DNA from: an uncultured Propionivibrio sp.
Lineage (GTDB): Bacteria > Pseudomonadota > Gammaproteobacteria > Burkholderiales > Rhodocyclaceae
DNA: 42,616 bases
Assembly (NCBI GenBank): GCA_937923255.1
Contig: CALAIL010000032.1
Coordinates: forward strand, 1 to 42,616
Direction of reading: 5' to 3'
The translations under genes and the position numbers were made by a program. Below the pieces are notes generated by a model. That model was not told the origin of the DNA, did not search any database, and saw only the letters and a list, made by a program, of their open reading frames with translations. Below, piece after piece: positions 30,526 through 42,616 of this stretch (positions are counted from its first letter, which is position 1; each line of letters begins with the position of its first letter).

Positions 30526-31140
30526 CTATGCCCGGCCGAGCCGGTAAAAAGCCAGGCTGCCGTTCAAGTTCGGATCGTCGATGACGGGCCGGCCGTTGTC
30601 ATCGAAGGCGCGACGTTCGCGTATTTCGATGTCCAGCCGGCTGCACAGCGCCTCAAAATCGGCAATCGTGAAGAAGCGGACGTTCGGCGTGTCGTACCAT
30701 TCATAAGGCAGATCCTCGGATACCGGCACGTGGCCGCGGACAATAGCCTCGCGGTTAATCCGATAGGCAAAATTTGGAAAACTGACCACGGCCTCACGCG
30801 CCACGCGCAGCATTTCGTTCAGGATGCGCTCGGTTTCCAGCATGGTCTGCAGGGCCTGCGAAATGATGGCGTGATCGAATGATTGGTCTTCAAAACTGGA
30901 CAGTCCCTGGTCGATATTCATCTGAATGACGTCGATGCCGTTGCGGATGCAAGCCAGCACCTTATCGGGGGCGATTTCGACGCCGTAGCCGCTGATTTTG
31001 CGCGTCTCGCGCAGGTAGCGCAGCAGGTTGCCATCGCCGCAGCCGAGGTCGAGCACACGCTCGCCGGCGGGAATCCAGTCGGCAATGACGGCAAAATCGA
31101 AGCGTTCGCGTTCGTGCTTGCTAAGTTGGTTAAGATTCAT
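30526..31140 (-). CDS. metW: methionine biosynthesis protein MetW
   Basis: 204 aa class I methyltransferase-fold protein: SAM-motif [15 protein letters not shown] (~residues 30-44), [22 protein letters not shown], then the late strands with [12 protein letters not shown]. In proteobacteria MetW partners MetX and is needed for its activity. The ATG overlaps the metX stop as ATGA (31137-31140), so stoichiometric coupled translation is expected. Confidence 0.94.
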
Positions 31141-32282
31141 ACTGCAATATTCTCCAGGTACGCGCGCAGCACGGCGTGATAATGCGCGTCGTTGAGCAGG
31201 AAGGAATCATGCCCGGCGACGCAGTCGATTTCCGCATACGCTACACGGCGCTGGTTCTTGAGCAGCGCAAAGACGATTTCGCGCGAACGCGCGGGCGAGA
31301 AGCGCCAGTCGGTCGAAAAGCTGACGACGAGGAAATCCGCGCGCGCGCGCGCCAATGCAGCCGCCAGATCACCGCCGTAGGCATAGGCCGGGTCAAAATA
31401 ATCGAGCGTCTTGGTCGTCATCAGGTAAGTGTTGGCGTCAAAAAAACCTGCAAATTTGTCGCCTTGATAGCGCAGATAGGATTCGATTTCGAAGTCGACA
31501 TCATAATTGTAGGTGTGCTGGTCATAGCGCATCTGGCGGCCGAATTTCTCATTCATCTGATCGTCCGACAAATAGGTAATGTGACCGATCATGCGTGCCA
31601 GCCGCAGGCCGCGTTCCGGCACGACACCGTATTCAGCGTAATGGCCGTCATGGAAATCCGGGTCGGAGAGAATCGCCTGGCGGGCGATTTCGTTGAAAGC
31701 GATGTTTTGCGCCGAGAGTTTTGGCGCCGAGGCAATGGCAATAGTGTGGCGGATGCGCTCGGGAAACTGCAGCGACCACTCAAGGGCCTGCATGCCGCCG
31801 AGGCTGCCGCCGATGACGGCCGCCCAGGCCTCGATCCCTAGATGATCGGCCAAGCGTGCCTGTGCGGCCACCCAGTCTTCCACCATCACCAGCGGGAAAT
31901 CGGCGCCGTAGTGCTTGCCGGTTTCCGGATTACGCGAGAGCGGCCCGGTCGAACCAAAACAGCCGCCCAGATTGTTGACGCCAACAACGAAAAATTTTCG
32001 CGTGTCAAGTGGCTTGCCCGGGCCGACGAGATTGTCCCACCAGCCGAGATTTTTCGGGTTGTCGCTGGCGATACCGGCAACATGGTGGTTGCCGGAAAGT
32101 GCATGGCAGACCAGCACCGCGTTGCTGCGCGTGGCGTTGAGCGTGCCATAGGTTTCGAAGACGAGTTCGAAACCGGGTAACTGTGCGCCGCTTTTCAGCG
32201 TCAGCGGCACATCGGAATAAAAGCGTTGCGGCGCTACGACGCCGACGGAATTATCTGCAATCATCGTATGCGTATCGTGCAT
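31137..32282 (-). CDS. metX: homoserine O-acyltransferase MetX
   Basis: 381 aa from the ATG at 32282; a second ATG at 32264 gives 375 aa, and neither has a strong ribosome binding site. Alpha/beta-hydrolase fold: [15 protein letters not shown] (oxyanion region), nucleophile elbow [12 protein letters not shown], acid in [10 protein letters not shown], and the His in AGHDSFLL. It acylates homoserine in the first committed step of methionine synthesis; acetyl versus succinyl donor cannot be read with certainty. Upstream there is a SAM-II aptamer (32378-32430). Confidence 0.94.
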
Positions 32283-32310
32283 GTTGTACAGAGCGTACCA
32301 AAATAAATAA

Positions 32311-32373
32311 CGCCCAACCGGCTTGGCAATGTCCGGAAGAAGCCGGACAAACACCTGATAAGCGGGCTGGGCG
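32311..32373 (-). terminator. terminator-like expression platform of the metX leader
   Basis: On the minus strand CGCCCAGCC (complement of 32365-32373) pairs with GGTTGGGCG (complement of 32311-32319; one G-T pair). An inner hairpin GTCCGG-CTTCTT-CCGGAC (32331-32348) lies between. TTATTTATTTT follows the outer stem. The left arm starts 5 nt after the SAM-II core, so ligand binding could favour this terminator. Confidence 0.6.
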
Positions 32374-32430: not shown

Positions 32431-32773
32431 GGCTGGCAAATTAATGGCGCCGCCGGAAAATGTCAAGAAACCGTCGATGCGTATAAGACTCACTAAGTGG
32501 TGCCGGGTTCCGGCAGCTTGGATATTAGATATGCACGCCAGAACAAAGCGGATGCTTCGGAATTGTGAATAATCGAAATACGCAGAAAAGAGTTAAGTCA
32601 TCTAAACACGCCGTGCCAGGCGATGCCGATCGTGTGTGTGGGAATGGTATTTGACAGCACAAAAATTTGACTTGCCCGCTAGGGAGCACGTGTTTTTATT
32701 GACTAGCCTGTTTGCCCGGGGGATAGTTCCGGACGGGAGCAGTATTCTTAAATAGCAGACAGTGAGGCCGGTT
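32431..32773. other. boundary region between metX leader and CRISPR-cas locus
   Basis: 343 bp without a supported gene. Base composition shifts here from the GC-rich host to the A+T-richer cas region. A promoter candidate TTGACT-N17-GATAGT (32699-32727) faces the HD-domain gene. No tRNA, integrase or clear attachment-site duplication is visible, so how the locus entered cannot be read. Confidence 0.45.
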
Positions 32774-33346
32774 ATGAATGAGATCCTTGGCGGTATTTGC
32801 TATGCCCACTCCGGCGCCAGATCAGACCACGCTGACTGGCAATCTCTACAAAGCCACGGATACAAAGTTGGCGAGATGGCGGCTGCCTTTGCTGCTGCCT
32901 TCGGTGCGGAACAAATCGCCCGCTACACCGGGCAGCTGCATGACCTTGGTAAATACACACCGGAATTCAATGCGCGTTTACACGGCGGTTCGCGTGTTGA
33001 TCATGCTACTGCTGGTGCAAAAATCGCCTTTGAACGCTGGGGAAAAATCGCCATCGGCAAACTGATGGCATTTTGCATTGCGGGGCACCATGCCGGATTA
33101 GCAAATGGAAACGGTGAAGGTGATAACCGCCGCACGTTAAAGCAGCGTTTGGCTTTGCAATTCGGCGCAGATATTCCCGCTCTCGATAACCTGTGGCAAC
33201 AAGAAATCAAGCTCCCCAAAAACCTGTCTGCACCGCCACTCAAAGCCGATGCGCATCATCCTTTTTTCTCCTACGCCTTCTTTACCCACATGTTCTATTC
33301 CTTCCTAGTGGATGCCCATTACTTTGATACTGAAATGTTTGTATAA
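32774..33346 (+). CDS. stand-alone Cas3''-type HD nuclease domain (truncated or split cas3)
   Basis: 190 aa, alignable by eye to the HD domain (about residues 1-210) of the full Cas3 encoded at 33653. HD residues are all kept: His28 (LQSH), His56-Asp57 with Lys60 (LHDLGK), His77 in DHATAGA, His105-His106 (AGHHAGLA), and Asp180 in FLVDAHYFDTE. It ends by a stop just past that last block, where the intact protein continues to its helicase. It is diverged from the neighbouring Cas3, so it is not a recent duplicate. It is either an active Cas3''-like nuclease or the remnant of an older cas3. The ATG at 32774 has GAGG 7 bp upstream. Confidence 0.75.
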   Translation: MNEILGGICYAHSGARSDHADWQSLQSHGYKVGEMAAAFAAAFGAEQIARYTGQLHDLGKYTPEFNARLHGGSRVDHATAGAKIAFERWGKIAIGKLMAFCIAGHHAGLANGNGEGDNRRTLKQRLALQFGADIPALDNLWQQEIKLPKNLSAPPLKADAHHPFFSYAFFTHMFYSFLVDAHYFDTEMFV

Positions 33347-33652: not shown

Positions 33653-36154
33653 ATGTCTGACATGATTGCACATGCCCGCCAAGATTCATCGGAAAATTGG
33701 CATTTCCACCCACTACAAAAACACTTACAAGAAGTGGCGAAACTCGCTAAACGTTTCGCGGGAAGTTATGGAGCGTTATTTGCCGAATATGCGGGTCTTT
33801 TGCACGATTTGGGAAAATTTCAGGCTGCCTTTCAGGAATATATCTGCAAAGTTTTGGGATTTGAACGGGAAAATGCTCATCTTGAAGATGTCGACTTTTC
33901 TAAGCCGCACAAACCCCCTCATTCCACTGCCGGTGCCAAATATGCGGTGGAACGCCTTAATCCGTTTTTCGGGCATTTGCTGGCGTATCTGATTGCTGGG
34001 CATCACGCGGGTCTGGCAGATTGGTACGACAAGGGCAGCCTGAAGCTTCGTCTGCAACAGGCAGATGACGAAGTGGCGGCATCTTTATCGGGCTTGGTGG
34101 AAAGTGGATTGTCTGAAGATTTTTTCCCGTTATCCGATGATGATCTGAAGCGGGATTTTTTTGCATTTTGGGAAGACGGGGCAAAGCTGGAAGAGTTGCA
34201 TATTTGGCTGCGTTTTCTCTTTTCCTGCTTGGTAGATGCCGATTTTTTGGATACCGAAGCCTTTATGAACGGTTATGCCGATGCAGATGCTGCGCAGGCT
34301 GCCGGATTGCGCCCAAAATTTCCCTGTTTGAATGAGTTGCACTGGCGATATGAGCAGTATATGGCGCAACTTCATGAAAAATCAGATAAAGATTCATTCT
34401 TAAATCAAGAACGCCATACCATTTTGCAGCAATGTTTTTCTGCCGCAGAAACCGATCGTACTTTGTTTTCTTTAACCGTGCCGACCGGCGGTGGAAAAAC
34501 TTTGGCGAGCTTGGGGTTCGCTTTGAAGCATGCGCTGGAATTCGGTAAAAAACGCATTATCTACGCCATTCCCTTCACCAGCATTATCGAGCAGAACGCC
34601 GATGTTTTCCGCAAAGCATTAGGTGATGATGTGGTATTGGAACACCACAGCAATTTGGAAGTGAAAGAAGACAAGGAAACTGCGAAAACCCGCCTTGCCA
34701 CGGAAAATTGGGACGCGCCGCTAATTGTTACCACCAACGTGCAACTGTTTGAAAGCTTGTTTGCGGCGAAAACCAGCCGCTGCCGCAAAATTCACAATAT
34801 TGCTGACAGCGTGGTGATTTTGGACGAAGCCCAGCAGCTTCCGCGCGATTTCCAAAAACCGATTACCGACATGATGCGGGTGCTGGCGCGTGATTACGGC
34901 GTTACCTTTGTGCTGTGCACGGCAACCCAACCGGAGCTTGGCAAAAATATCGACGCATTCGGTCGCACCATTTTGGAAGGGCTACCAGATGTGCGCGAAA
35001 TTGTGGCAGACAAAATTGCCTTATCGGAAAAACTGCGCCGCGTCCGCATCAAAATGCCGCCGCCAAACGGCGAAACGCAGAGCTGGCAGGAAATTGCCGA
35101 TGAAATTGCTATGCGTCCGTGTGTTTTGGCGGTGGTCAATACGAGAAAACACGCCCAAAAACTCTTTGCCGCCCTGCCTTCTAACGGAATCAAGCTACAT
35201 TTGTCTGCCAATATGTGCGCCACACACCGCAGCGAAGTCATTGCGCTGGTTCGCCGATATTTGACGTTGTATCGCGCAGGCAGCCTGCACAAGCCCTTGT
35301 GGCTGGTCAGCACGCAGTTGATTGAAGCAGGCGTAGATTTGGATTTCCCTTGCGTTTATCGGGCGATGGCAGGGCTGGACAGCATCGCCCAAGCGGCGGG
35401 GCGGTGCAACCGTGAAGGCAAACTGCCGCAGTTGGGCGAAGTAGTCGTATTCCGCGCCGAAGAAGGCGCGCCCAGCGGCAGCCTGAAACAGGGGCAGGAC
35501 ATTACCGAAGAGATGCTGAAAGCAGGGCTGCTTGACGACCCGCTTTCCCCGTCGGCATTTGCCGAATATTTCCGCCGATTTAACGGCAAAGGTGATGTGG
35601 ACAAACACGGTATCACAACGCTTTTGACGGCGGAATCATCAAATGAAAATCCGCTGACAATCAAATTCCGTACCGCTGCCGAACGTTTCCGCCTGATTGA
35701 TAACCAAGGCGTGGCACTGGTTGTGCCATTTATCCCGTTGGCTCATTGGAAAGCAAACGGCAATACGCAGATCGTCAAAGCAAACGAGCTGGACGATTTT
35801 TTCAGGCAACATTTGGACGGTGTGGAAGTTTCAGAATGGCAGGATGTTTTGGACAAACAACGCTTTCCGCAGCCGACCGACAACTCCTTCGGGCAAACTG
35901 ACCAACCGCCGCTGCCCGAGCCTTTTGAACGCTGGTTCAGCCTGCTGGAAAGCGACCCACTCAAATACAAATGGGTTTACCGCAAATTGCAACGCTACAC
36001 GATTACCGTGTACGAACATGAACTGAAAAAGCTGCCTGCACATGCCGTTTTTTCCAGAGCGGGATTGCTGGTGTTGGACAAGGGCTATTACAAAGCCGTG
36101 CTTGGCGCTGATTTTGATGATGCGACTTGGCGATCTGAAAATTCGGTTTTGTGA
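33653..36154 (+). CDS. cas3: CRISPR-associated helicase/nuclease Cas3 (type I-C)
   Basis: 833 aa. The N-terminal HD nuclease has His24, His51-Asp52 with Lys55 (LLHDLGK), His90 (HSTAGA) and His117-His118 (AGHHAGLAD). The SF2 helicase has Walker A PTGGGKT (~278-284), ILDEAQ (DEAH-box variant, ~390), LCTATQPEL (motif III) and the motif V-VI block STQLIEAGVDLDFP...QAAGRCNREG. It degrades target DNA once Cascade has bound. Start ATG 33653 has only a weak purine-rich upstream site. The cas5 gene begins 23 bp after the stop. Confidence 0.96.
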   Translation: MSDMIAHARQDSSENWHFHPLQKHLQEVAKLAKRFAGSYGALFAEYAGLLHDLGKFQAAFQEYICKVLGFERENAHLEDVDFSKPHKPPHSTAGAKYAVERLNPFFGHLLAYLIAGHHAGLADWYDKGSLKLRLQQADDEVAASLSGLVESGLSEDFFPLSDDDLKRDFFAFWEDGAKLEELHIWLRFLFSCLVDADFLDTEAFMNGYADADAAQAAGLRPKFPCLNELHWRYEQYMAQLHEKSDKDSFLNQERHTILQQCFSAAETDRTLFSLTVPTGGGKTLASLGFALKHALEFGKKRIIYAIPFTSIIEQNADVFRKALGDDVVLEHHSNLEVKEDKETAKTRLATENWDAPLIVTTNVQLFESLFAAKTSRCRKIHNIADSVVILDEAQQLPRDFQKPITDMMRVLARDYGVTFVLCTATQPELGKNIDAFGRTILEGLPDVREIVADKIALSEKLRRVRIKMPPPNGETQSWQEIADEIAMRPCVLAVVNTRKHAQKLFAALPSNGIKLHLSANMCATHRSEVIALVRRYLTLYRAGSLHKPLWLVSTQLIEAGVDLDFPCVYRAMAGLDSIAQAAGRCNREGKLPQLGEVVVFRAEEGAPSGSLKQGQDITEEMLKAGLLDDPLSPSAFAEYFRRFNGKGDVDKHGITTLLTAESSNENPLTIKFRTAAERFRLIDNQGVALVVPFIPLAHWKANGNTQIVKANELDDFFRQHLDGVEVSEWQDVLDKQRFPQPTDNSFGQTDQPPLPEPFERWFSLLESDPLKYKWVYRKLQRYTITVYEHELKKLPAHAVFSRAGLLVLDKGYYKAVLGADFDDATWRSENSVL

Positions 36155-36177: not shown

Positions 36178-36822
36178 ATGAGTTTCGTCTTGGAAATCAG
36201 CGGCGATTTAGCATGCTTCACCAGGCCCGAGCTTAAGGTGGAGAGGGTAAGTTACCCTGTTATCACGCCGTCAGCCGCCAGAAACATCTTAATGGCGATA
36301 TTGTGGAAGCCGGCCATTCGCTGGAAGGTCTTGAAGATAGAAATCCTGAAACCGATTCAGTGGACGAACATCCGCCGCAACGAAGTGGGAGCCAAGATGA
36401 GTGAGCGTAGCGGCTCGCTCTATATTGAAGATAACCGCCAGCAGCGCGCATCCATGCTGCTGAAAGACGTTGCCTATCGCATCCACGCCGATTTTGACAT
36501 GACAAGTGAAGCAGGAGAAAGCGACAACTACGTCAAGTTTGCCGAAATGTTTAAACGGCGGGCAAAAAAAGGGCAATATTTCCACCAACCTTATTTGGGC
36601 TGCCGCGAGTTTCCCTGTCATTTCAGGCTGCTTGAAAAGGTTGAAGACGGTTTGCCGCGCGAAGACATCACCCAAGATTTCGGCTTTATGTTGTACGACA
36701 TGGATTTCAGCAAATCCGCCCCACGCGATTCCAATAACGCCGAGCCGATGTTTTACCAATGCAAAGCGGTAAACGGCGTGATTACCGTGCCCCCAGCCGA
36801 CAGCGAGGAGGTGAAACGATGA
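36178..36822 (+). CDS. cas5c: Cas5c (Cas5d), crRNA-processing endoribonuclease and Cascade subunit
   Basis: 214 aa. Type I-C lacks Cas6, and Cas5c cuts the repeat at the 3' base of its stem-loop, leaving an 11-nt 5' handle. Seen: the N-terminal RAMP strand VLEISGDLACFTRPE, the PSAARNILMAILWKP helix, a Gly-rich-loop-like stretch, and the conserved HQPYLGCREFPCHF block (~138-152). AGGAGATG precedes the ATG. It overlaps cas8c by ATGA (36819-36822). Confidence 0.94.
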   Translation: MSFVLEISGDLACFTRPELKVERVSYPVITPSAARNILMAILWKPAIRWKVLKIEILKPIQWTNIRRNEVGAKMSERSGSLYIEDNRQQRASMLLKDVAYRIHADFDMTSEAGESDNYVKFAEMFKRRAKKGQYFHQPYLGCREFPCHFRLLEKVEDGLPREDITQDFGFMLYDMDFSKSAPRDSNNAEPMFYQCKAVNGVITVPPADSEEVKR

Positions 36823-38606
36823 TTCTGCACGCACTCACACAATACTACCAACGCAAAGCCAAAAGCGATGGCAGTGTTGCCCCAGAAGGATTTGAAAATA
36901 AAGAAATCCCGTTCATCATTGTTATAGACAAACAAGGCAAATTTATTCAGCTTGAAGATACCCGTGAGTTGAAAAACAAGAAAAAAATTGCCCGTACTTT
37001 TTTAGTGCCTAAAGGTTTGGGCAGAAGCGGCTCAAGATCCTATGAAGTAAGTAATTTATTGTGGGATCACTACGGCTATGTGCTTGCCTATGCCGGAGAA
37101 AAAGAGCAAGAGCAGGCAGATAAACAGCACGCCAGCTTTACTACCAAAGTAAACGAATTGAAACAGGCGCTGCCCGATGATGCAGGTGTTGCCGGGGTTG
37201 CTGCCTTTTTAGCTTCTGCGGAAGAAAAAAGCAAAGTCATGCAGGCTGCAAATTGGGCGGAATGCGCCAAAGTCAAAGGTTGCAATATCAGCTTCCGTTT
37301 GGTGGAAGAAGCGGTAGATTTGGTTTGTCAGTCAAAGGCTGTGCAAGACCATTTATTAAAAGGTAGTCAAGAATGTGTTGTTGGAGAAAAAAGCAAAGAT
37401 AAGTTTTATGGAACTTGTTTGGTAACAGGTAAAAAAACAAAAATTGCTAATTTACATACTGATATTAAAGGTATTAACAAAACACCAAAATCCCCTTTTG
37501 TTTCTGCAAATTTAGAAGCTTTTAAATCCTATGGGAAAGGTAACAATAAAGATAACGGGCTAATGTATCCGATTGGCGAACAAGCCATGTTTGAATATAC
37601 CACTGCCTTAAATACCCTGCTTGCCAGCGAAAACCGATTCCGTATCGGTGATGTAACAGCTGTATGTTGGAGCGCAAAACCGACTCCGTTGGAAGAAAGC
37701 CTTGCTTCGCTGATTAACGGCGGCGGCAAGGACAATCCCGATGCCCATATTGATGCGGTCAAGTCGCTTTATAAAAGCTTGTACAACGGGAAATACACAG
37801 AACCCGACGGCAAAGAAAAATTCTACCTTTTAGGCCTATCGCCCAATTCCGCGCGGGTTGTCGTCCGCTTTTGGCATGAAACCACCGTTGCCGCTTTATC
37901 CGAAAGCATTGCGGCGTGGTATGACGATTTGCAGATGGTGCGTGGCGAAAACTCGCCATACCCTGAATATATGCCGTTACCGCGCCTGCTGGGCAATTTG
38001 GTGTTGGATGGCAAAATGGAAAATCTGCCGTCCGATCTAATCGCCCAAGTAACCGATGCCGCATTAAACAACCGCGTTTTGCCCGTCAGCCTGTTGCAGA
38101 CTGCTTTACGTCGGGACAAAGCGGAACAGAAAATTACCTATGGCAGGGCAAGTTTGCTTAAAGCCTATATCAATCGCGCAATCCGCGCGGGTCGTCTGAA
38201 AAACATGAAGGAGCTAACTATGAGCTTAGATAGAAACCGTCAAGACATCGGCTATGTGCTGGGGCGGCTGTTTGCCGTACTGGAAAAAACACAGGCCGAA
38301 GCCAATCCCGGATTGAGCGCCACCATTGCCGACCGCTATTTCGGTTCGGCAAGTAGCACGCCGATTGCTGTGTTCGGCACACTGATGCGCTTGTTGCCGC
38401 ACCATTTGAACAAACTGGAATTTGAAGGACGCGCTGTGCAACTGCAATGGGAAATCCGCCAGATTTTGGAACATTGTCAGAGATTTCCCAACCATTTGAA
38501 TTTGGAACAGCAAGGCCTATTCGCCATCGGTTACTACCACGAAACCCAATTCCTGTTTACCAAAGACGCATTGAAAAATCTGTTCAACGAAGCGAAAACT
38601 GCATAA
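36819..38606 (+). CDS. cas8c: Cas8c (Csd1), large Cascade subunit
   Basis: 595 aa from the ATG at 36819, which overlaps the cas5c stop (ATGA); an in-frame codon at 36759 lies inside cas5c. The N-terminus ILHALTQYYQRKAK is typical of Csd1. It recognises the PAM and holds the non-target strand. Also seen: VGEKSKDKFYGTCLVTGKKTKIANLH, and the FYLLGLSPNSARVVVRFW block near residue 340. The C-terminal ~130 residues are also expected to be made separately as Cas11c from an internal start. Confidence 0.95.
   Translation: MILHALTQYYQRKAKSDGSVAPEGFENKEIPFIIVIDKQGKFIQLEDTRELKNKKKIARTFLVPKGLGRSGSRSYEVSNLLWDHYGYVLAYAGEKEQEQADKQHASFTTKVNELKQALPDDAGVAGVAAFLASAEEKSKVMQAANWAECAKVKGCNISFRLVEEAVDLVCQSKAVQDHLLKGSQECVVGEKSKDKFYGTCLVTGKKTKIANLHTDIKGINKTPKSPFVSANLEAFKSYGKGNNKDNGLMYPIGEQAMFEYTTALNTLLASENRFRIGDVTAVCWSAKPTPLEESLASLINGGGKDNPDAHIDAVKSLYKSLYNGKYTEPDGKEKFYLLGLSPNSARVVVRFWHETTVAALSESIAAWYDDLQMVRGENSPYPEYMPLPRLLGNLVLDGKMENLPSDLIAQVTDAALNNRVLPVSLLQTALRRDKAEQKITYGRASLLKAYINRAIRAGRLKNMKELTMSLDRNRQDIGYVLGRLFAVLEKTQAEANPGLSATIADRYFGSASSTPIAVFGTLMRLLPHHLNKLEFEGRAVQLQWEIRQILEHCQRFPNHLNLEQQGLFAIGYYHETQFLFTKDALKNLFNEAKTA
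38220..38606 (+). CDS. cas11c: Cas11c, internal translation product of cas8c (small subunit)
   Basis: An in-frame ATG at 38220 has AAGGAG at 38208-38213, 6 nt upstream: an ideal internal ribosome binding site inside cas8c. The product is 128 aa (MSLDRNRQDIGYVLGRL...), all-helical, ending with cas8c. Type I-C systems are known to make their Cas11 subunit this way from the 3' end of cas8c, and the size fits. The motif is visible; expression is inference from the family. Confidence 0.87.
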   Translation: MSLDRNRQDIGYVLGRLFAVLEKTQAEANPGLSATIADRYFGSASSTPIAVFGTLMRLLPHHLNKLEFEGRAVQLQWEIRQILEHCQRFPNHLNLEQQGLFAIGYYHETQFLFTKDALKNLFNEAKTA

Positions 38607-39511: not shown

Positions 39512-40162
39512 GTGCTTTTGCTTGAAACCCGAGAGGGGAATCAGGACACGCGCCTGATTCCCCTTTCTGCCCTGCAACACTACGCCTTCTGTCCGCGCCA
39601 ATGCGCGTTGATTCACAACGAGCAGGCGTGGGCGGATAACTATTTGACCGCGCAGGGCAAAGCGCTGCATGAGCGAGTGGATTCGGGCGAGCCGGAAACG
39701 CGCAAGGGCATGCGTTTTGAGCGGACGGTGCATGTGTCAGCGGAGAAACTGGGCATCAGCGGCGTGTTGGATTTGGTGGAAGTGGACACGAAAACAGGCC
39801 GTCTGAAACCCGTGGAATACAAACGCGGCAAGCCCAAACCTGACTCAATGGACGAAATCCAGCTTTGCGCCCAAAGTTTGTGCTTGGAAGAAATGACGGG
39901 GCAAACCGTCTCTGAGGGCGCGTTGTGGTATATGCAAACCCGCCACCGCGTCCCTGTCGTGTTTTCAGACGACCTGCGCGCCCAAACACTCGCCACCATC
40001 GCCGCCGTGCGCGAACTCCTAAACAGTGGTCAAACCCCACCGCCCGACTACGGCAAACGCTGCAAAGCCTGCTCACTGGTGGAGATTTGCCAACCGGAGT
40101 TATTGGGGAAACGGGATAGGAGTGTGGGGTATGTGGCAGGATTTTATACAATAAATATTTAA
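39512..40162 (+). CDS. cas4: Cas4, CRISPR adaptation exonuclease
   Basis: 216 aa from a GTG at 39512 (no ATG gives the same N-terminus). RecB-like nuclease with a [4Fe-4S] cluster: Cys27 (FCPRQC) with Cys184, Cys187 and Cys193 (CKACSLVEIC). Catalytic residues are Asp87 (GVLDLVE), Glu102 and Lys104 (VEYKRG), followed by QLCAQSLCLEE. Cas4 trims prespacers and selects the PAM. Its last codons overlap the pseudo-protospacer at 40132-40163. Cas1 normally follows closely; here it is 604 bp away. Confidence 0.95.
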   Translation: MLLLETREGNQDTRLIPLSALQHYAFCPRQCALIHNEQAWADNYLTAQGKALHERVDSGEPETRKGMRFERTVHVSAEKLGISGVLDLVEVDTKTGRLKPVEYKRGKPKPDSMDEIQLCAQSLCLEEMTGQTVSEGALWYMQTRHRVPVVFSDDLRAQTLATIAAVRELLNSGQTPPPDYGKRCKACSLVEICQPELLGKRDRSVGYVAGFYTINI

Positions 40163-40166
40163 GGAA
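40132..40166 (-). promoter_or_regulatory. pseudo-protospacer with TTC PAM (target of the crRNA-like RNA)
   Basis: On the minus strand, 5'-TTC (complement of 40164-40166) is followed by CTTAAATATTTATTGTAT. It matches the pseudo-spacer at 40508-40539 at 15 of its first 18 positions. Mismatches are at 6, 12 and 17. Positions 6 and 12 are flipped out in type I Cascade and need not pair. TTC is the usual type I-C PAM. The rest of the 32 nt is largely unmatched, enough for binding but not for destruction in known CreTA systems. The PAM lies 1 bp from the -35 box at 40168. Confidence 0.82.
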
Positions 40167-40167
40167 C

Positions 40168-40196
40168 TTTACAGATGGCTTGAGATGGCTTATTAT
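40168..40196 (+). promoter_or_regulatory. sigma70-type promoter of the 54-aa ORF
   Basis: TTTACA (40168-40173), 17-bp spacer, TATTAT (40191-40196): 5 of 6 matches in each box. Start of transcription is expected near 40203, giving a ~31-nt leader to the ATG at 40234. Cascade bound at the adjacent PAM would block it. Confidence 0.75.
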
Positions 40197-40199
40197 GGA

Positions 40200-40223
40200 C
40201 TCCTGTAAATCTTGCAACAGGAG
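40200..40223 (+). promoter_or_regulatory. hairpin occluding the small ORF's ribosome binding site
   Basis: CTCCTGT (40200-40206) is a perfect complement of ACAGGAG (40217-40223), which holds the Shine-Dalgarno AGGAG. If transcription starts at or before 40200 the hairpin could dampen translation. A start at ~40203 would break part of it. Confidence 0.4.
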
Positions 40224-40233
40224 AAAATAAAGA

Positions 40234-40398
40234 ATGGCTAATCGAAACAAACATAGCTGGAAAATTCGTCTAGAAAAGAAAGGTGATGATGAGCTTTTAT
40301 TTTGTGTTAAGGGTTTAAGGCAGATTATTCACCTTCCAAGGTTGGCAATCTTGACGTTTGTCTATTGGGTATATGAACATCTCCGTATACTTTTTTGA
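40234..40398 (+). CDS. 54-aa small protein, candidate CreT-like toxin (function unknown)
   Basis: A 54-codon ORF, ATG 40234 to TGA 40398, with AGGAGA upstream and its own promoter. Residues 1-20 are basic and polar (MANRNKHSWKIRLEKKGDDE). Residues ~33-54 form a hydrophobic, aromatic-rich helix (HLPRLAILTFVYWVYEHL) that could insert in a membrane. No family recognised. Its promoter is the target of the crRNA-like unit downstream, so by analogy with CreTA it is the candidate toxin. The harmful agent could also be the RNA or its rare codons (CGA, CTA, two AGG). Toxicity is inference; the ORF, RBS and targeting are seen. Confidence 0.6.
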   Translation: MANRNKHSWKIRLEKKGDDELLFCVKGLRQIIHLPRLAILTFVYWVYEHLRILF

Positions 40399-40463
40399 AT
40401 CCAAAAGATATATTAATGATTAAGTTTAGTATTTTTCTTTTTAAAGGAGGTGGTATCTAGGAA

Positions 40464-40469
40464 TATAAT
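40464..40469 (+). promoter_or_regulatory. -10 box of the crRNA-like RNA
   Basis: Perfect TATAAT. The -35 candidate at 18 bp spacing is TTTAAA (40440-40445), 4 of 6. Transcription would begin near 40476, 4 nt before the pseudo-repeat stem. Confidence 0.6.
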
Positions 40470-40475
40470 TTTATG

Positions 40476-40578
40476 AATTCAGGTATTTTATATCTGTGTG
40501 TTGAAACCTTAATTATTTCTTGTTTGATTTTGATTGAGTGGTACTGCCTCTTTTTAGGGGCGGTACTTACTTTTATTT
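40476..40578 (+). ncRNA. CreA-like crRNA-like antitoxin RNA (degenerate mini-CRISPR)
   Basis: Three parts in order. Pseudo-repeat 1 (40480-40507): stem CAGGTA / TATCTG (one G-T pair), then TGTGTTGAAAC. The last 14 nt equal the 3' end of the real repeat (42538-42569), including the whole 11-nt crRNA handle, and the stem keeps its CAG...CTG base although the sequence differs. Pseudo-spacer (40508-40539, 32 nt; the real spacer is 35). Pseudo-repeat 2: hairpin GTACTGCC / GGCGGTAC (40541-40566) in the place of the real 3' stem, followed by a T-rich tail that may terminate. Its guide matches the promoter region at 40132-40166. Known concept: CreA RNAs guide Cascade to silence creT. Confidence 0.8.
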
Positions 40579-40594
40579 GGTCTATGTGGCAAGA

Positions 40595-40641
40595 GTAGCA
40601 ACTGTATTTTTGCCCGATGGGGTGAAAAATACAGTTGCTAC
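40595..40641. repeat. perfect 17-bp inverted repeat
   Basis: GTAGCAACTGTATTTTT (40595-40611) and its exact complement (40625-40641) flank a 13-nt loop with an inner CCC/GGG pairing. Because each arm ends in a T or A run, it could terminate in both directions. It separates the CreTA-like module from cas1. A small mobile repeat is an alternative. Confidence 0.75.
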
Positions 40642-40649
40642 CTGCTGTT

Positions 40650-40717
40650 TTCAGGCAGTCTGCACGATCTGCGTGAGTCGGATTCAAGACTCCGACCTAC
40701 CGTTTTTCAGGTAGCCC
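40650..40717. repeat. Neisseriaceae-like uptake-sequence variants and GTCGGA palindrome
   Basis: TTCAGGCAGTCT (40650-40661) differs at one base from the inverted Simonsiella-type uptake sequence. TTCAGGTAGCCC (40706-40717) differs at one base from the inverted Eikenella-type. Between them is GTCGGA...TCCGAC (40677-40696), a motif I associate with neisserial intergenic repeats. The pairs can fold into small hairpins (CTACC...GGTAG) typical of uptake-sequence terminators. Confidence 0.55.
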
Positions 40718-40766
40718 TCCCCTATTAAACGCCCCAAAACTGCGTTCAAACCCAAGGAATTTCCCC

Positions 40767-41780
40767 ATGCGCAAACTGCAAAACACGCTCTATATCACCA
40801 CCCAAGGCAGCTATCTGCATAAGGAGCGGGAGACGCTGGTGGTGGAGCAGGAGCGTAAGAAGGTGGCGCAGTTGCCGGTGCATTCCATCGGGCATATTTT
40901 CTGTTTTGGGAATGTGCTGGTGTCGCCGTTTTTGCTGGGGTTTTGCGGCGAAAATAATGTGAATTTGGCGTTTTTTACCGAAAACGGACGTTTCTTGGGG
41001 CGGCTTCAGGGGCGGCAGAGTGGCAATGTGCTGTTGCGTCGGGCGCAGTATCGGGTGTCGGAGCAAAATCCCGTGCCGATTGCGCGCAATATCATTGCGG
41101 CGAAGATTCAGGCGGGTAAGCGGGTGCTTCAGCGGCAGATTCGCAATTATGGCGAGGATGCGGCGATTCAAAGTGCGGTCGATTCTTTGAATATTTCGCT
41201 GCGGCAGTTGAAGGGCACGGCGGAGCTGGACGTGGTGCGCGGTATTGAGGGCGATGCGGCGGCGCGTTATTTCGGCGTGTTTGGGCAGCTTTTGAGCGAA
41301 AAAAGCGGTTTTTCTTTTAACGGGCGCAACCGCCGTCCGCCCAGAGACGGGGTGAACGCGCTACTGTCGTTTGTGTACAGCATTTTGGGCAAGGACATCA
41401 GCGGCGCGCTGCAAAGTGTGGGGCTAGATCCGCAGGTGGGCTTTCTGCACGCCGACCGGCCGGGGCGCGACAGTTTAGCGCAGGATATTTTGGAAGAATT
41501 CCGCGCGTGGTGGGCGGACAGGTTGGTGCTATCGCTGATTAACCGCGGGCAAATCAAACCGCAGGATTTTGTTACCGAGGCAAGCGGCGCGGTGAGCTTG
41601 AAAGCCGATGCGCGCAAGCTCGTGTTTCAGTCTTTGCAAGCGAAGAAGCAAGAGAAAATTGTGCATCCATTTTTGGGTGAAGAAGTGGAAATCGGATTGC
41701 TGCCGTATATTCAGGCGATGCTGTTGGCGCGCCATTTGCGTGGGGATTTGGCGGAATATCCGCCATTTTTGATGCGATAG
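40767..41780 (+). CDS. cas1: Cas1 (type I-C), CRISPR integrase
   Basis: 337 aa. N-terminal beta domain RKLQNTLYITTQGSYLHKERETLVVEQE; the catalytic C-terminal helical domain carries the metal-binding Glu/His/Asp set, seen in the DGVNALLSFVYSILGKDISGALQSVGLDPQVGFLHADRPGRDSLAQDILEEFR region. With Cas2 it inserts spacers. It starts after a 604-bp interval containing the CreTA-like module, so it probably has its own promoter or depends on readthrough. Confidence 0.96.
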   Translation: MRKLQNTLYITTQGSYLHKERETLVVEQERKKVAQLPVHSIGHIFCFGNVLVSPFLLGFCGENNVNLAFFTENGRFLGRLQGRQSGNVLLRRAQYRVSEQNPVPIARNIIAAKIQAGKRVLQRQIRNYGEDAAIQSAVDSLNISLRQLKGTAELDVVRGIEGDAAARYFGVFGQLLSEKSGFSFNGRNRRPPRDGVNALLSFVYSILGKDISGALQSVGLDPQVGFLHADRPGRDSLAQDILEEFRAWWADRLVLSLINRGQIKPQDFVTEASGAVSLKADARKLVFQSLQAKKQEKIVHPFLGEEVEIGLLPYIQAMLLARHLRGDLAEYPPFLMR

Positions 41781-42049
41781 TGCGTATTTTTCTAAACAAG
41801 TCTTTGTAATTAAGCCGTCTGAGGAGTATTTGAAGGGATAAGGGAAAATTTAACGGTGTTAAATCATTATTTTGTTTTAGCTTGTAGAAAATGATGTTTT
41901 CTATCAGAAGCTTCTAGGTCTTTAAGAAGACCATTTTCGATATAAGATGGCAAGCTCAGAAAATATAAATAGCACGGCAAAACGCAGCAATGTTGTTACG
42001 GAAAAATCAATGCATTTACTATATTTGAAGAAATGCTGATGAGAACGAT
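41781..42049. other. 269-bp A+T-rich interval between cas1 and cas2
   Basis: No supported gene. Several short palindromes occur: AGAAAA/TTTTCT (about 41887-41903) and GGTCTT/AAGACC (around 41920-41933). AAGCCGTCTGAG (41812-41823) resembles the Neisseria uptake sequence at 10 of 12 positions. cas1 and cas2 of I-C loci are usually adjacent, so the gap is unusual. Confidence 0.5.
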
Positions 42050-42343
42050 ATGTTAATGCTGATTACTTATGATATTTCGCTTGAAGACCGAGAAGGGCAG
42101 TCAAGGCTGCGGCGCGTGGCGAAATTGTGTCTGGATTACGGCGTGCGTGTGCAATATTCCGTATTTGAATGCGACATTGCGCCCGATCAGTGGGTGAAAC
42201 TGAAAGCCGGTTTACTCGATATTTTCAAGCCCGAGACGGACAGCCTGCGCTTTTATCATCTGGGCAGCAAATGGCGGGGCAAGGTGGAGCATCACGGTGC
42301 AAAACCGGCAATGGATGTATTCAAGGATTCACTGGTTATTTAG
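42050..42343 (+). CDS. cas2: Cas2 (type I-C)
   Basis: 97 aa ferredoxin-fold protein that bridges two Cas1 dimers. The N-terminal strand LITYDIS carries the conserved Asp; also seen are RRVAKLCLDYGVRVQYSVFEC and the C-terminal YHLGSKW segment. The ATG at 42050 or 42056 could serve; the upstream site is weak. Confidence 0.96.
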   Translation: MLMLITYDISLEDREGQSRLRRVAKLCLDYGVRVQYSVFECDIAPDQWVKLKAGLLDIFKPETDSLRFYHLGSKWRGKVEHHGAKPAMDVFKDSLVI

Positions 42344-42537
42344 CTTCGCTGACCGCTGGTTAGCATAAAAATGCGGGCAGGTTAGCGAACGCTATGGGTT
42401 CTTTCACAATTGGGTTATTTATATGGTTTGTATGGCGTAAATGCGGACGCTATACTGACCAGACTCTTTGCCATTGAAACAGGTTAGCGAAAAGTAGATA
42501 GTATCTATTTGATTTTTCGTGAGTTTTTAGGCACGGA
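42344..42537 (+). promoter_or_regulatory. CRISPR leader
   Basis: 194 bp of A+T-rich DNA between cas2 and the first repeat, the position of the leader that holds the array promoter and directs spacer insertion. It contains three copies of GGTTAGC (42358, 42380, 42482); the last two continue GAA. It also holds two copies of ACGCTAT (near 42390 and 42450). Confidence 0.75.
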
Positions 42538-42616
42538 GCAGCCGCCTTCGGGCGGCTGTGTGTTGAAACTTGGGCAATCAATGCCTGCATTTGCTGCCAT
42601 AGGTGCAGCCGCCTTC
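42538..42616 (+). CRISPR. type I-C CRISPR array, first unit (runs off the window)
   Basis: Repeat 1 is 32 nt (42538-42569): an 8-bp stem CAGCCGCC/GGCGGCTG with TTCG loop, then the 11-nt handle TGTGTTGAAAC. Spacer 1 is 35 nt (42570-42604). Repeat 2 starts at 42605 and is cut at the window end after 12 matching bases. Repeat and spacer lengths fit type I-C. Confidence 0.95.

What the first reader, a model, noticed from the sequence alone, without database searches (positions are those of the whole stretch)
40132..40580. CreTA-like CRISPR-repressed toxin-antitoxin module inside a type I-C locus
Seen: between cas4 and cas1 lie (1) a promoter TTTACA-N17-TATTAT driving a 54-aa ORF, (2) a solitary degenerate repeat-spacer-hairpin unit whose 3' 14 nt equal the array repeat, and (3) a match of its pseudo-spacer to the DNA beside that promoter's -35 box: 15 of the first 18 positions, mismatches at 6, 12 and 17, with a TTC PAM. 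Positions 6 and 12 are the flipped bases of type I Cascade. Established: CreTA systems (first known from haloarchaeal I-B) use such a guide so that Cascade silences a toxin, making Cascade loss harmful. Inference: this is an I-C version protecting the upstream cas5c-cas8c-cas7c genes. I do not recognise this toxin and do not know whether this family has been described.
Basis: partly seen in the sequence, partly recalled or inferred. Interest (0 to 1): 0.95.

Follow-up and report, generated by a model that had tools for sequence, protein, structure and literature searches.

The report
CRISPR-guarded toxin switch, type I-C
Between two CRISPR genes lies a small gene and, behind it, a decayed CRISPR-repeat unit whose guide matches the DNA beside that gene's predicted promoter, a match kept in six other genomes although the letters changed; the CRISPR machinery likely uses this guide to keep the gene, a predicted small membrane toxin, switched off, so that losing or blocking CRISPR would be punished.

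Summary
Between cas4 and cas1 of a type I-C locus lie a 54-aa ORF (40234-40398) with a predicted promoter (40168-40196) and a psiR1-psiS-hairpin unit (40476-40567). The first 16 nt of psiS match, on the minus strand, the DNA 1 bp from the -35 box except at positions 6 and 12, with a TTC PAM. It is the only such site in 42.6 kb; 0 of 20,000 shuffles equalled it. Homologous modules lie in six other genomes (Neisseriaceae, Pasteurellaceae). In all seven the pseudo-spacer fits its own target at 13-14 of 14 positions although letters differ between loci: guide and target changed together. The ORF belongs to an unannotated family of 34 protein clusters with a hydrophobic C-terminal half. Most likely this is a CreTA-like module in which I-C Cascade silences a small membrane toxin. 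Guide-target pairing is shown; transcription, repression and toxicity are inferred. Unexpected: the module travels with cas4-cas1, not with the effector genes, and related I-C loci carry such guides in front of other cargo, Kiwa genes included.

The parts
33653..36154 (+). cas3 (833 aa)
   Evidence: Pfam/NCBIfam
36178..36822 (+). cas5c, expected repeat processor and Cascade subunit
   Evidence: PF09704; processing role recalled
36759..38606 (+). cas8c (csd1); longest ORF, the true start may be later
   Evidence: PF09709, TIGR01863
38619..39470 (+). cas7c (csd2)
   Evidence: PF05107
39512..40162 (+). cas4; its 3' end is part of the target
   Evidence: PF01930
40146..40163 (-). protospacer (target of psiS), positions 1-18 read from 40163 downwards; matches 1-5, 7-11, 13-16, 18
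40164..40166 (-). PAM TTC (GAA on the + strand)
40168..40196 (+). predicted promoter TTTACA-N17-TATTAT of the small ORF; the -35 is 1 bp from the PAM
   Evidence: at the same place L047 and L081 read TTGACT and TTGACG
40219..40223 (+). ribosome-binding site AGGAG
   Evidence: sequence
40234..40398 (+). 54-aa ORF, predicted toxin: charged N-terminal half, hydrophobic C-terminal half
   Evidence: family of 34 protein clusters; no Pfam match at E 0.1, no PADLOC match at E 1e-10; hydrophobicity
40443..40452 (+). AAAGGAGGTG, a Shine-Dalgarno-like element without a start codon at normal distance; role unknown
   Evidence: AGGAGG also follows or ends the ORF in L047, L059, L081 and L082; in L033 it lies inside the ORF; not seen in L090 (by eye)
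40440..40469 (+). second promoter-like match TTTAAA-N18-TATAAT, candidate creA promoter
   Evidence: TATCAT in L081, so weakly supported
40476..40507 (+). psiR1: degenerate repeat with hairpin 40480-40496 and intact handle TGTGTTGAAAC
40508..40539 (+). psiS (pseudo-spacer, about 32 nt; the one array spacer in view is 35 nt)
40540..40577 (+). psiR2-like hairpin (40540-40567) with T-rich tail; terminator-like
   Evidence: 1 terminator-like site, shuffled mean 0.7
40595..40641 (+). perfect 17-nt inverted repeat between the module and cas1
   Evidence: I2
40767..41780 (+). cas1
   Evidence: PF01867
42050..42343 (+). cas2
   Evidence: PF09827
42538..42569 (+). first repeat of the CRISPR array in view

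Best explanation
The stretch between cas4 and cas1 carries a small ORF and a degenerate repeat/pseudo-spacer unit whose first 16 bases match, save positions 6 and 12, the DNA beside that ORF's predicted promoter, and it likely works as a CreTA-like module in which the crRNA-like RNA would guide the I-C Cascade to silence a predicted small membrane toxin. Inferred steps: Cas5c would cut the unit at the psiR1 hairpin, giving an RNA with the normal 5' handle. Cascade would load it and bind 40146-40163 next to the -35 box; pairing that ends at about position 16 would be too short for Cas3 to cut. RNA polymerase would be kept off. If Cascade is mutated, lost or blocked by an anti-CRISPR, the promoter would open and the small membrane protein would stop or kill the cell. 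Shown here: the parts, the guide-target match with PAM, its co-variation in seven loci, and a guide unit beside this ORF in each of the seven genomes where I could look. Not shown: transcription, processing, repression, toxicity.
For: (1) Match not chance: 14/14 in the window, 0 of 20,000 shuffles. A scan blind to the ORF over 49 stretches (44 cas4-cas1 intervals, 5 stretches upstream of cas1 without a detected cas4) hits exactly 6: window, L033, L047, L059, L081, L082; 100 shuffled sets gave mean 0.03, max 1. (2) Co-variation: in a 7x7 table each psiS fits its own target 14/14 (L059 13/14), other loci's targets 3-13/14; over the 14 scored positions every psiS difference in all 21 pairs is mirrored in the target. 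(3) Constant architecture: PAM TTC (4 of 7) or TTT (3 of 7); target 0-9 bp from the -35 as I read it by eye; position 6 mismatched in 7 of 7; matching ends at 16-18; psiR1 folds into a hairpin in 7 of 7 and a hairpin follows psiS in 7 of 7 (folds without shuffle control). (4) The handle follows the host array: TGAG in the hosts of L082 and L033, TGTG in those of the window, L081 and L047. (5) L082 and L090 were found by protein profiles that did not contain them (E 1.2e-6; 9.3e-7); both carry a fitting unit, L090's at another place, cas3-cas5. (6) dN below dS in 8 of 10 pairs of five loci, codons 1-32 (L047-L059 dS 2.6, dN 0.20). (7) Precedents: I-B and I-F CreTA (PMC8501985, PMC10097628), I-E CreT that must be translated (PMC12055562).
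Against: No experiment. The promoter scan is no richer than shuffles, and the window's -35 (TTTACA) is poorer than its relatives'. In the closest pair, window-L081, dN hardly differs from dS (0.10, 0.12); in window-L082 and L081-L082 dN exceeds dS. The window's hydrophobic stretch is the weakest of seven (17-residue mean 1.44), below the customary cut-off of 1.6 for a membrane helix (recalled). L033's ORF is a weak family member once left out of the profile (10 bits, E 0.002 for 81 loci). Position 12 matches in L033 and L090. L090's handle differs at one base from its array (TGTG against TGTA). The AlphaFold2 model is poor (pLDDT 67, pTM 0.32). The module is rare: an intact ORF in 3 of 83 genomes of G001's family and 3 of 140 of G002's; in a class-wide sample of 369 only in G001. 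No function-tested relative was found.
Confidence: 0.66

Rival explanations
1. The toxin is the RNA, not the protein: the Cascade-repressed transcript with its strong translation signals (AAAGGAGGTG at 40443) would titrate ribosomes or tRNAs, as the I-B and I-F CreT RNAs are reported to do.
For: Characterised CreTs of I-B and I-F are RNA toxins although their mini-ORFs look conserved (PMC8501985, PMC10097628). An AGGAGG element without a start codon at normal distance lies behind or at the end of the ORF in five loci.
Against: 47-63 codons instead of 6-11; a protein family recognisable across divergent DNA; dN below dS in 8 of 10 pairs; the element is absent in L090.
Confidence: 0.13
2. Regulation without a toxin (CreR-like): Cascade would tune a promoter that reads on into cas1-cas2, or into cas5-cas8-cas7 in L090.
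For: Three A-lineage loci carry a unit aimed at the predicted cas5 promoter itself (L101, L145, L151). The module precedes cas genes in all seven loci.
Against: In the window a terminator-like hairpin and a perfect inverted repeat separate the module from cas1 (one terminator-like site against 0.7 in shuffles). One ORF family lies between target and guide in all seven loci, at two different places.
Confidence: 0.07
3. The ORF is a guarded defence effector rather than an addiction toxin: a backup released when Cascade is blocked, harmful mainly to the phage.
For: In related loci the two gaps of the cas operon hold defence genes, and fitting guides lie in front of cargo such as the Kiwa genes.
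Against: A 54-aa protein with one hydrophobic stretch resembles known small membrane toxins more (recalled); no PADLOC match of three members at E 1e-10.
Confidence: 0.12
4. A decayed mini-array or self-targeting spacer, with a chance match.
For: psiR1 and psiR2 are degenerate.
Against: Co-variation in seven loci and shuffles; phage matches to psiS are weak (best E 0.03) and only one of 12 spans the seed.
Confidence: 0.02

Closest known systems
CreTA of type I-B (Haloarcula, Halobacterium) and I-F (Acinetobacter)
   Same: psiR-psiS-psiR unit in the cas locus; seed matches 1-5 and 7-11; PAM; target by the toxin promoter (PMC8501985: abstract and first third of Results read; PMC10097628: passages)
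   Different: subtype I-C, where Cas5c replaces Cas6 (recalled); 47-63 codon ORF of a protein family instead of a mini-ORF RNA toxin; carried with cas4-cas1
CreT of Citrobacter rodentium, type I-E (PMC12055562, passages read)
   Same: small ORF that must be translated; psiS target next to the promoter (UP element); adjacent PAM
   Different: subtype; 96-bp ORF without homologues in that paper; CreA on the opposite strand
CrePA (review PMC12737573, section 3.3 and passages read; original paper not held)
   Same: protein toxin under CreA-guided repression, released by anti-CRISPRs
   Different: CreP is described there as typically a KilA-N protein; this ORF has no Pfam domain
CreR (passages of reviews PMC12737573, PMC13131331; original not held)
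   Same: crRNA-like RNA and the CRISPR effector as transcriptional repressor
   Different: CreR targets cas promoters; here the target fronts the small ORF
Racr solitary repeat units (PMC10651486, start of abstract in a listing only)
   Same: solitary repeat unit
   Different: viral; here in a cas locus, and with a matching target

Membership tests
CreTA | degenerate repeat-like unit inside the cas locus with an intact 5' handle | tested here: met
CreTA | psiS matches 1-5 and 7-11 of a PAM-flanked target by the toxin promoter, partial match only | tested here: met
   co-varies in 7 loci; the promoter itself is predicted
CreTA | second degenerate repeat or terminator behind psiS | tested here: met
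   hairpin 40540-40567
CreTA | Cascade-dependent repression of the toxin promoter | not testable with these tools
   needs a reporter in cas deletion strains
CreTA | mature crRNA-like CreA RNA | not testable with these tools
   needs small-RNA sequencing
CreTA | product toxic to its host | not testable with these tools
   needs induction
CreTA | toxin is an RNA (I-B, I-F prototypes) | tested here: inconclusive
   protein family and dN<dS in 8 of 10 pairs, but not in window-L082 and L081-L082; rare codons not tested
CrePA | KilA-N type protein toxin | tested here: not met
   no Pfam match
CreR | target is the promoter of a cas gene | tested here: not met
   target fronts the small ORF; cas1 starts 604 bp after the target
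Racr | encoded by a phage or other mobile element | tested here: not met
   no phage match to 40100-40766; sits between cas4 and cas1

The most novel reading that the evidence does not exclude
Type I-C loci of Neisseriaceae and Pasteurellaceae have two exchangeable cargo slots (cas3-cas5 and cas4-cas1) in which crRNA-like guides make Cascade hold different cargo in reserve - small membrane toxins as here, DUF2188 proteins, even the Kiwa defence genes - so that any anti-CRISPR that blocks Cascade releases a toxin or a second, unrelated defence. Cascade would then be a general guard of stored defences, not only of one addiction toxin.
Probability: 0.45. Interest if true: 0.92.

Novelty: new variant of a known kind. 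Interest (0 to 1): 0.78.

Why it matters
It extends Cascade-repressed toxin modules to subtype I-C, with an unannotated protein family that can be searched for, and it supplies seven naturally co-varied guide/target pairs, direct material for a swap test of guide and promoter. The recombination between effector lineages shows that such a module can come to lie beside a different Cascade. If the wider pattern holds, CRISPR effectors act as guards that release stored defences when an anti-CRISPR disarms them; the same guides could be used to screen for I-C anti-CRISPRs.

Tried and rejected
Chance match: rejected by shuffles. Immune spacer: the 35-nt psiS query has only weak phage matches in 12 records, E 0.03 or worse, covering 54-80% of it; one of the 12 spans the seed. 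Decayed array: rejected by co-variation. Relatives in phage records and viral contigs: none. Plasmid collection: only two N. gonorrhoeae records, matching about 40595-40647 (the inverted repeat), not the module. Rfam: nothing in 40000-42616 at E 1. AlphaFold2 model of the ORF: low confidence, not used, no fold search made. Two marginal profile places (L089; L091/L093) have in-frame stops and no cas match nearby, dropped. 41-aa ORF 40473-40598: ends early in L081 and is missing in L047, so not counted as a part (by eye). Host: unnamed; the neighbouring gene 31137-32354 is at best 72% identical (885 bp) in 83 genomes of N. elongata's family and has only a 25-bp match in 12 genomes of Cardiobacterium's; Pasteurellaceae were not tested, and Neisseria uptake words are scarce; left open. 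One search masked repeated words and so missed L083, unmasked, found it. Weaker psiS/target hits in L026, L044 and L048 (handle only 6/8) were not counted. Of 93 Cas1 matches I fetched 80 loci (82 matches); 11 matches to short Cas1 pieces were left out. One search was capped (90 relatives, best 80 kept, 78 loci). Part of the output was cut (most of L141 and the end of L116 unseen).

Prior work on I-C: searches 'type I-C + CreA + creT' (whole word, 0 papers), 'type I-C + CRISPR + Neisseria elongata' (0), mixed terms with no I-C module in the listing, 'Kiwa + cas3 + cas5 + intergenic + type I-C + CRISPR' (0). The library lacks the original Science 2021, Cell Host Microbe 2023 and Nat Chem Biol papers, so an earlier prediction of I-C CreTA cannot be excluded.

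Full report
WHAT IS THERE. The window ends in a type I-C locus: cas3, cas5c, cas8c, cas7c, cas4, cas1, cas2 and the start of an array with repeat GCAGCCGCCTTCGGGCGGCTGTGTGTTGAAAC. Between cas4 (stop 40162) and cas1 (start 40767) lie, in order: a target with PAM TTC on the minus strand (40163 downwards, PAM 40164-40166), a predicted promoter (40168-40196), a 54-aa ORF (40234-40398), a Shine-Dalgarno-like word AAAGGAGGTG (40443-40452), psiR1 (40476-40507) with a hairpin and the exact 14-nt 3' end of the array repeat, psiS (40508-40539), and a hairpin with T-rich tail (40540-40577).

CHANCE. psiS 1-16 without positions 6 and 12 matches the target 14/14. No other place in the 42.6-kb window with a TTC/TTT PAM reaches 11/14. 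In 20,000 Markov shuffles of the 400 bp searched, none reached 14 and 0.02% reached 13.

RELATIVES. A scan of named genomes with Cas1 gave 78 loci (capped, 90 relatives, best 80 kept). A scan that knew nothing of the ORF asked for a handle (7/8 of GTTGAAAC), a TT[CT] PAM and 13/14 matches. A protein profile of the ORF found a seventh, L090 (unnamed, N. elongata's family), lying between cas3 and cas5 instead; there too a fitting unit is present. I call the two families Neisseriaceae and Pasteurellaceae from these named members; the tool prints no family names.

CO-VARIATION. Each of the seven pseudo-spacers fits its own target at 14 of 14 positions (L059: 13), other loci's targets at 3 to 13. 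Window and L081 differ at position 15 in both guide and target; window and L047 at 4 and 8 in both; L082 and L090 differ from the window at 7 and 10 positions, again in both. Over the 14 scored positions every guide difference in all 21 pairs is mirrored; the only unmirrored change is target position 7 of L059. Position 6 is mismatched in 7 of 7, position 12 in 5 of 7; matching ends at 16-18.

HANDLE AND HAIRPINS. psiR1 folds into a hairpin in 7 of 7 though stem letters vary (-4.9 to -11.7 kcal/mol against -18.1 for the array repeat), and a hairpin follows psiS in 7 of 7 (no shuffle control for these folds). The handle follows the host array: TGAG in the hosts of L082 and L033, whose arrays end TGAGTTGAAAC; TGTG in the window and in the hosts of L081 and L047. 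In both TGAG cases the last base of psiR1 is T instead of C. One exception: L090's host array reads TGTATTGAAAC, its psiR1 TGTGTTGAAAC. For L059 the array's 3' end was cut in my consensus and was not compared.

THE ORF. Profile searches found 24, then 34 protein clusters, the window's own included, without Pfam domain; one is named as a Pasteurellaceae hypothetical protein. In an alignment of 20 the core W.I..E...DDE.....KG is invariant; L033 and L090 keep it only in part. A hydrophobic stretch follows (17-residue Kyte-Doolittle mean 1.44-2.69 in seven sequences; the window's is the lowest and lies below the customary 1.6, recalled). Three members have no PADLOC match at E 1e-10. In codons 1-32 of five loci dN is below dS in 8 of 10 pairs (L047-L059 dS 2.6, dN 0.20), barely so in the closest pair (window-L081: dS 0.12, dN 0.10), and above it in window-L082 and L081-L082 (no significance test; L033 and L090 not included). 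L033's ORF joins only weakly when left out of the profile (10 bits); L090's joins clearly (35 bits). I take it as a protein, with the RNA-toxin rival open, because the characterised I-B and I-F CreTs are RNAs (PMC8501985, PMC10097628) while the I-E CreT of C. rodentium must be translated (PMC12055562).

WHICH CASCADE. By best cas7 match, three I-C effector lineages occur among 81 loci: A 6, B 42, C 28, 5 unassigned. Five of the seven modules sit with C effectors, one (L090) with B, the window with A. Window and L083 share 87.9% DNA identity from 39524 to 41780 and only patches upstream. So cas4-module-cas1 was joined to other effector genes. Function with A-type Cascade is plausible because the handle equals the array's, but it is not shown.

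THE WIDER PATTERN. The 81 loci are 80 of those found with Cas1 (short Cas1 pieces left out) and the window. The cas4-cas1 gap ranges from none to about 2.7 kb; in the named loci it holds genes with CBASS-like cyclase and SLATT, reverse-transcriptase (AbiP2/DRT), OLD/GajA, GmrSD and restriction domains (54 ORFs scanned, top families listed only). The cas3-cas5 gap of B-lineage loci is a second slot. The strict guide/target rule hits 6 of 64 cas4-cas1 gaps over 120 bp (20 shuffled sets: mean 0.05, max 1) and 13 of 36 cas3-cas5 gaps (mean 0.1, max 1). Of 32 B loci with a cas3-cas5 gap of 150 bp or more, 21 carry a handle-like unit just before cas5 and 11 do not; in 12 of the 21 the best target next to the end of cas3 reaches 12/14 or more (shuffle fraction 0.005 or less), in 9 it does not (one of the nine, L124, has a 13/14 target elsewhere in its gap). 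Behind such targets lie a DUF2188 protein (L108 by Pfam, L104 and L116 by similarity), KwaA-KwaB behind a 103-aa ORF (L122), an NA37-domain protein (L124), and a protein without a family match (L144). In A loci L101, L145 and L151 (3 of 6) the unit lies on the minus strand and its target covers the predicted promoter of cas5 itself, like CreR; the window has only 23 bp there and lacks it. These are sequence patterns without any test of function.

MECHANISM. Most likely Cas5c releases the guide, Cascade binds beside the -35 box without recruiting cleavage, and the toxin stays off; Cascade failure opens the promoter. Seed, PAM, position and co-variation are shown; everything from transcription onwards is inferred. 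Roles of Cas5c in I-C processing and of the flipped positions 6 and 12 are recalled.

NOVELTY. The kind is known (CreTA, CrePA, CreR; papers seen as passages, sections or abstracts as listed in Closest known systems). I found no paper on an I-C case, but three key originals are not held. Hence: new variant of a known kind, with high interest for the co-variation set and for the slot pattern.

Noticed in passing
L122, L129, L130, L141, L144, L097, L112, L146 (and L124): gap cas3-cas5: Handle-like unit just before cas5 whose guide fits a PAM-flanked target right behind cas3, in front of cargo that in L122 includes KwaA and KwaB (Kiwa); 12 of 21 B-lineage loci with a unit reach 12/14. Possible Cascade-guarded backup defences.
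   Followed up: partly
L104, L108, L116: gap cas3-cas5 (L120 and L154 carry the protein, with a weaker unit or match): A 76-aa DUF2188 protein between target and guide unit, a second candidate Cascade-repressed small protein.
   Followed up: partly
L101, L145, L151: gap cas3-cas5, minus strand: CreR-like unit whose guide fits the predicted cas5 promoter region at 13/14; the window's 23-bp gap lacks it.
   Followed up: partly
cas4-cas1 gap of L001-L078: Defence-cargo slot: 54 ORFs of 70 aa or more, with cyclase/SLATT, reverse transcriptase, OLD, GmrSD and restriction domains among them.
   Followed up: partly
window 32762-33346: 194-aa HD-domain piece of a second Cas3, 76-77% identical to the first of two tandem cas3 genes in L083 and L085.
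   Followed up: partly
window 40443-40452: AAAGGAGGTG, a strong Shine-Dalgarno-like word without a start codon at normal distance, also found (at least AGGAGG) behind or at the end of the ORF in four relatives; role unexplained.
   Followed up: partly
L059 3290-3377: Two repeat-like units in tandem before psiS, with another spacer-like stretch between them: possibly an earlier stage of degeneration.
   Followed up: no
L082 (reverse complement about 1300-1450): The target/promoter stretch seems to be partly duplicated upstream (by eye).
   Followed up: no
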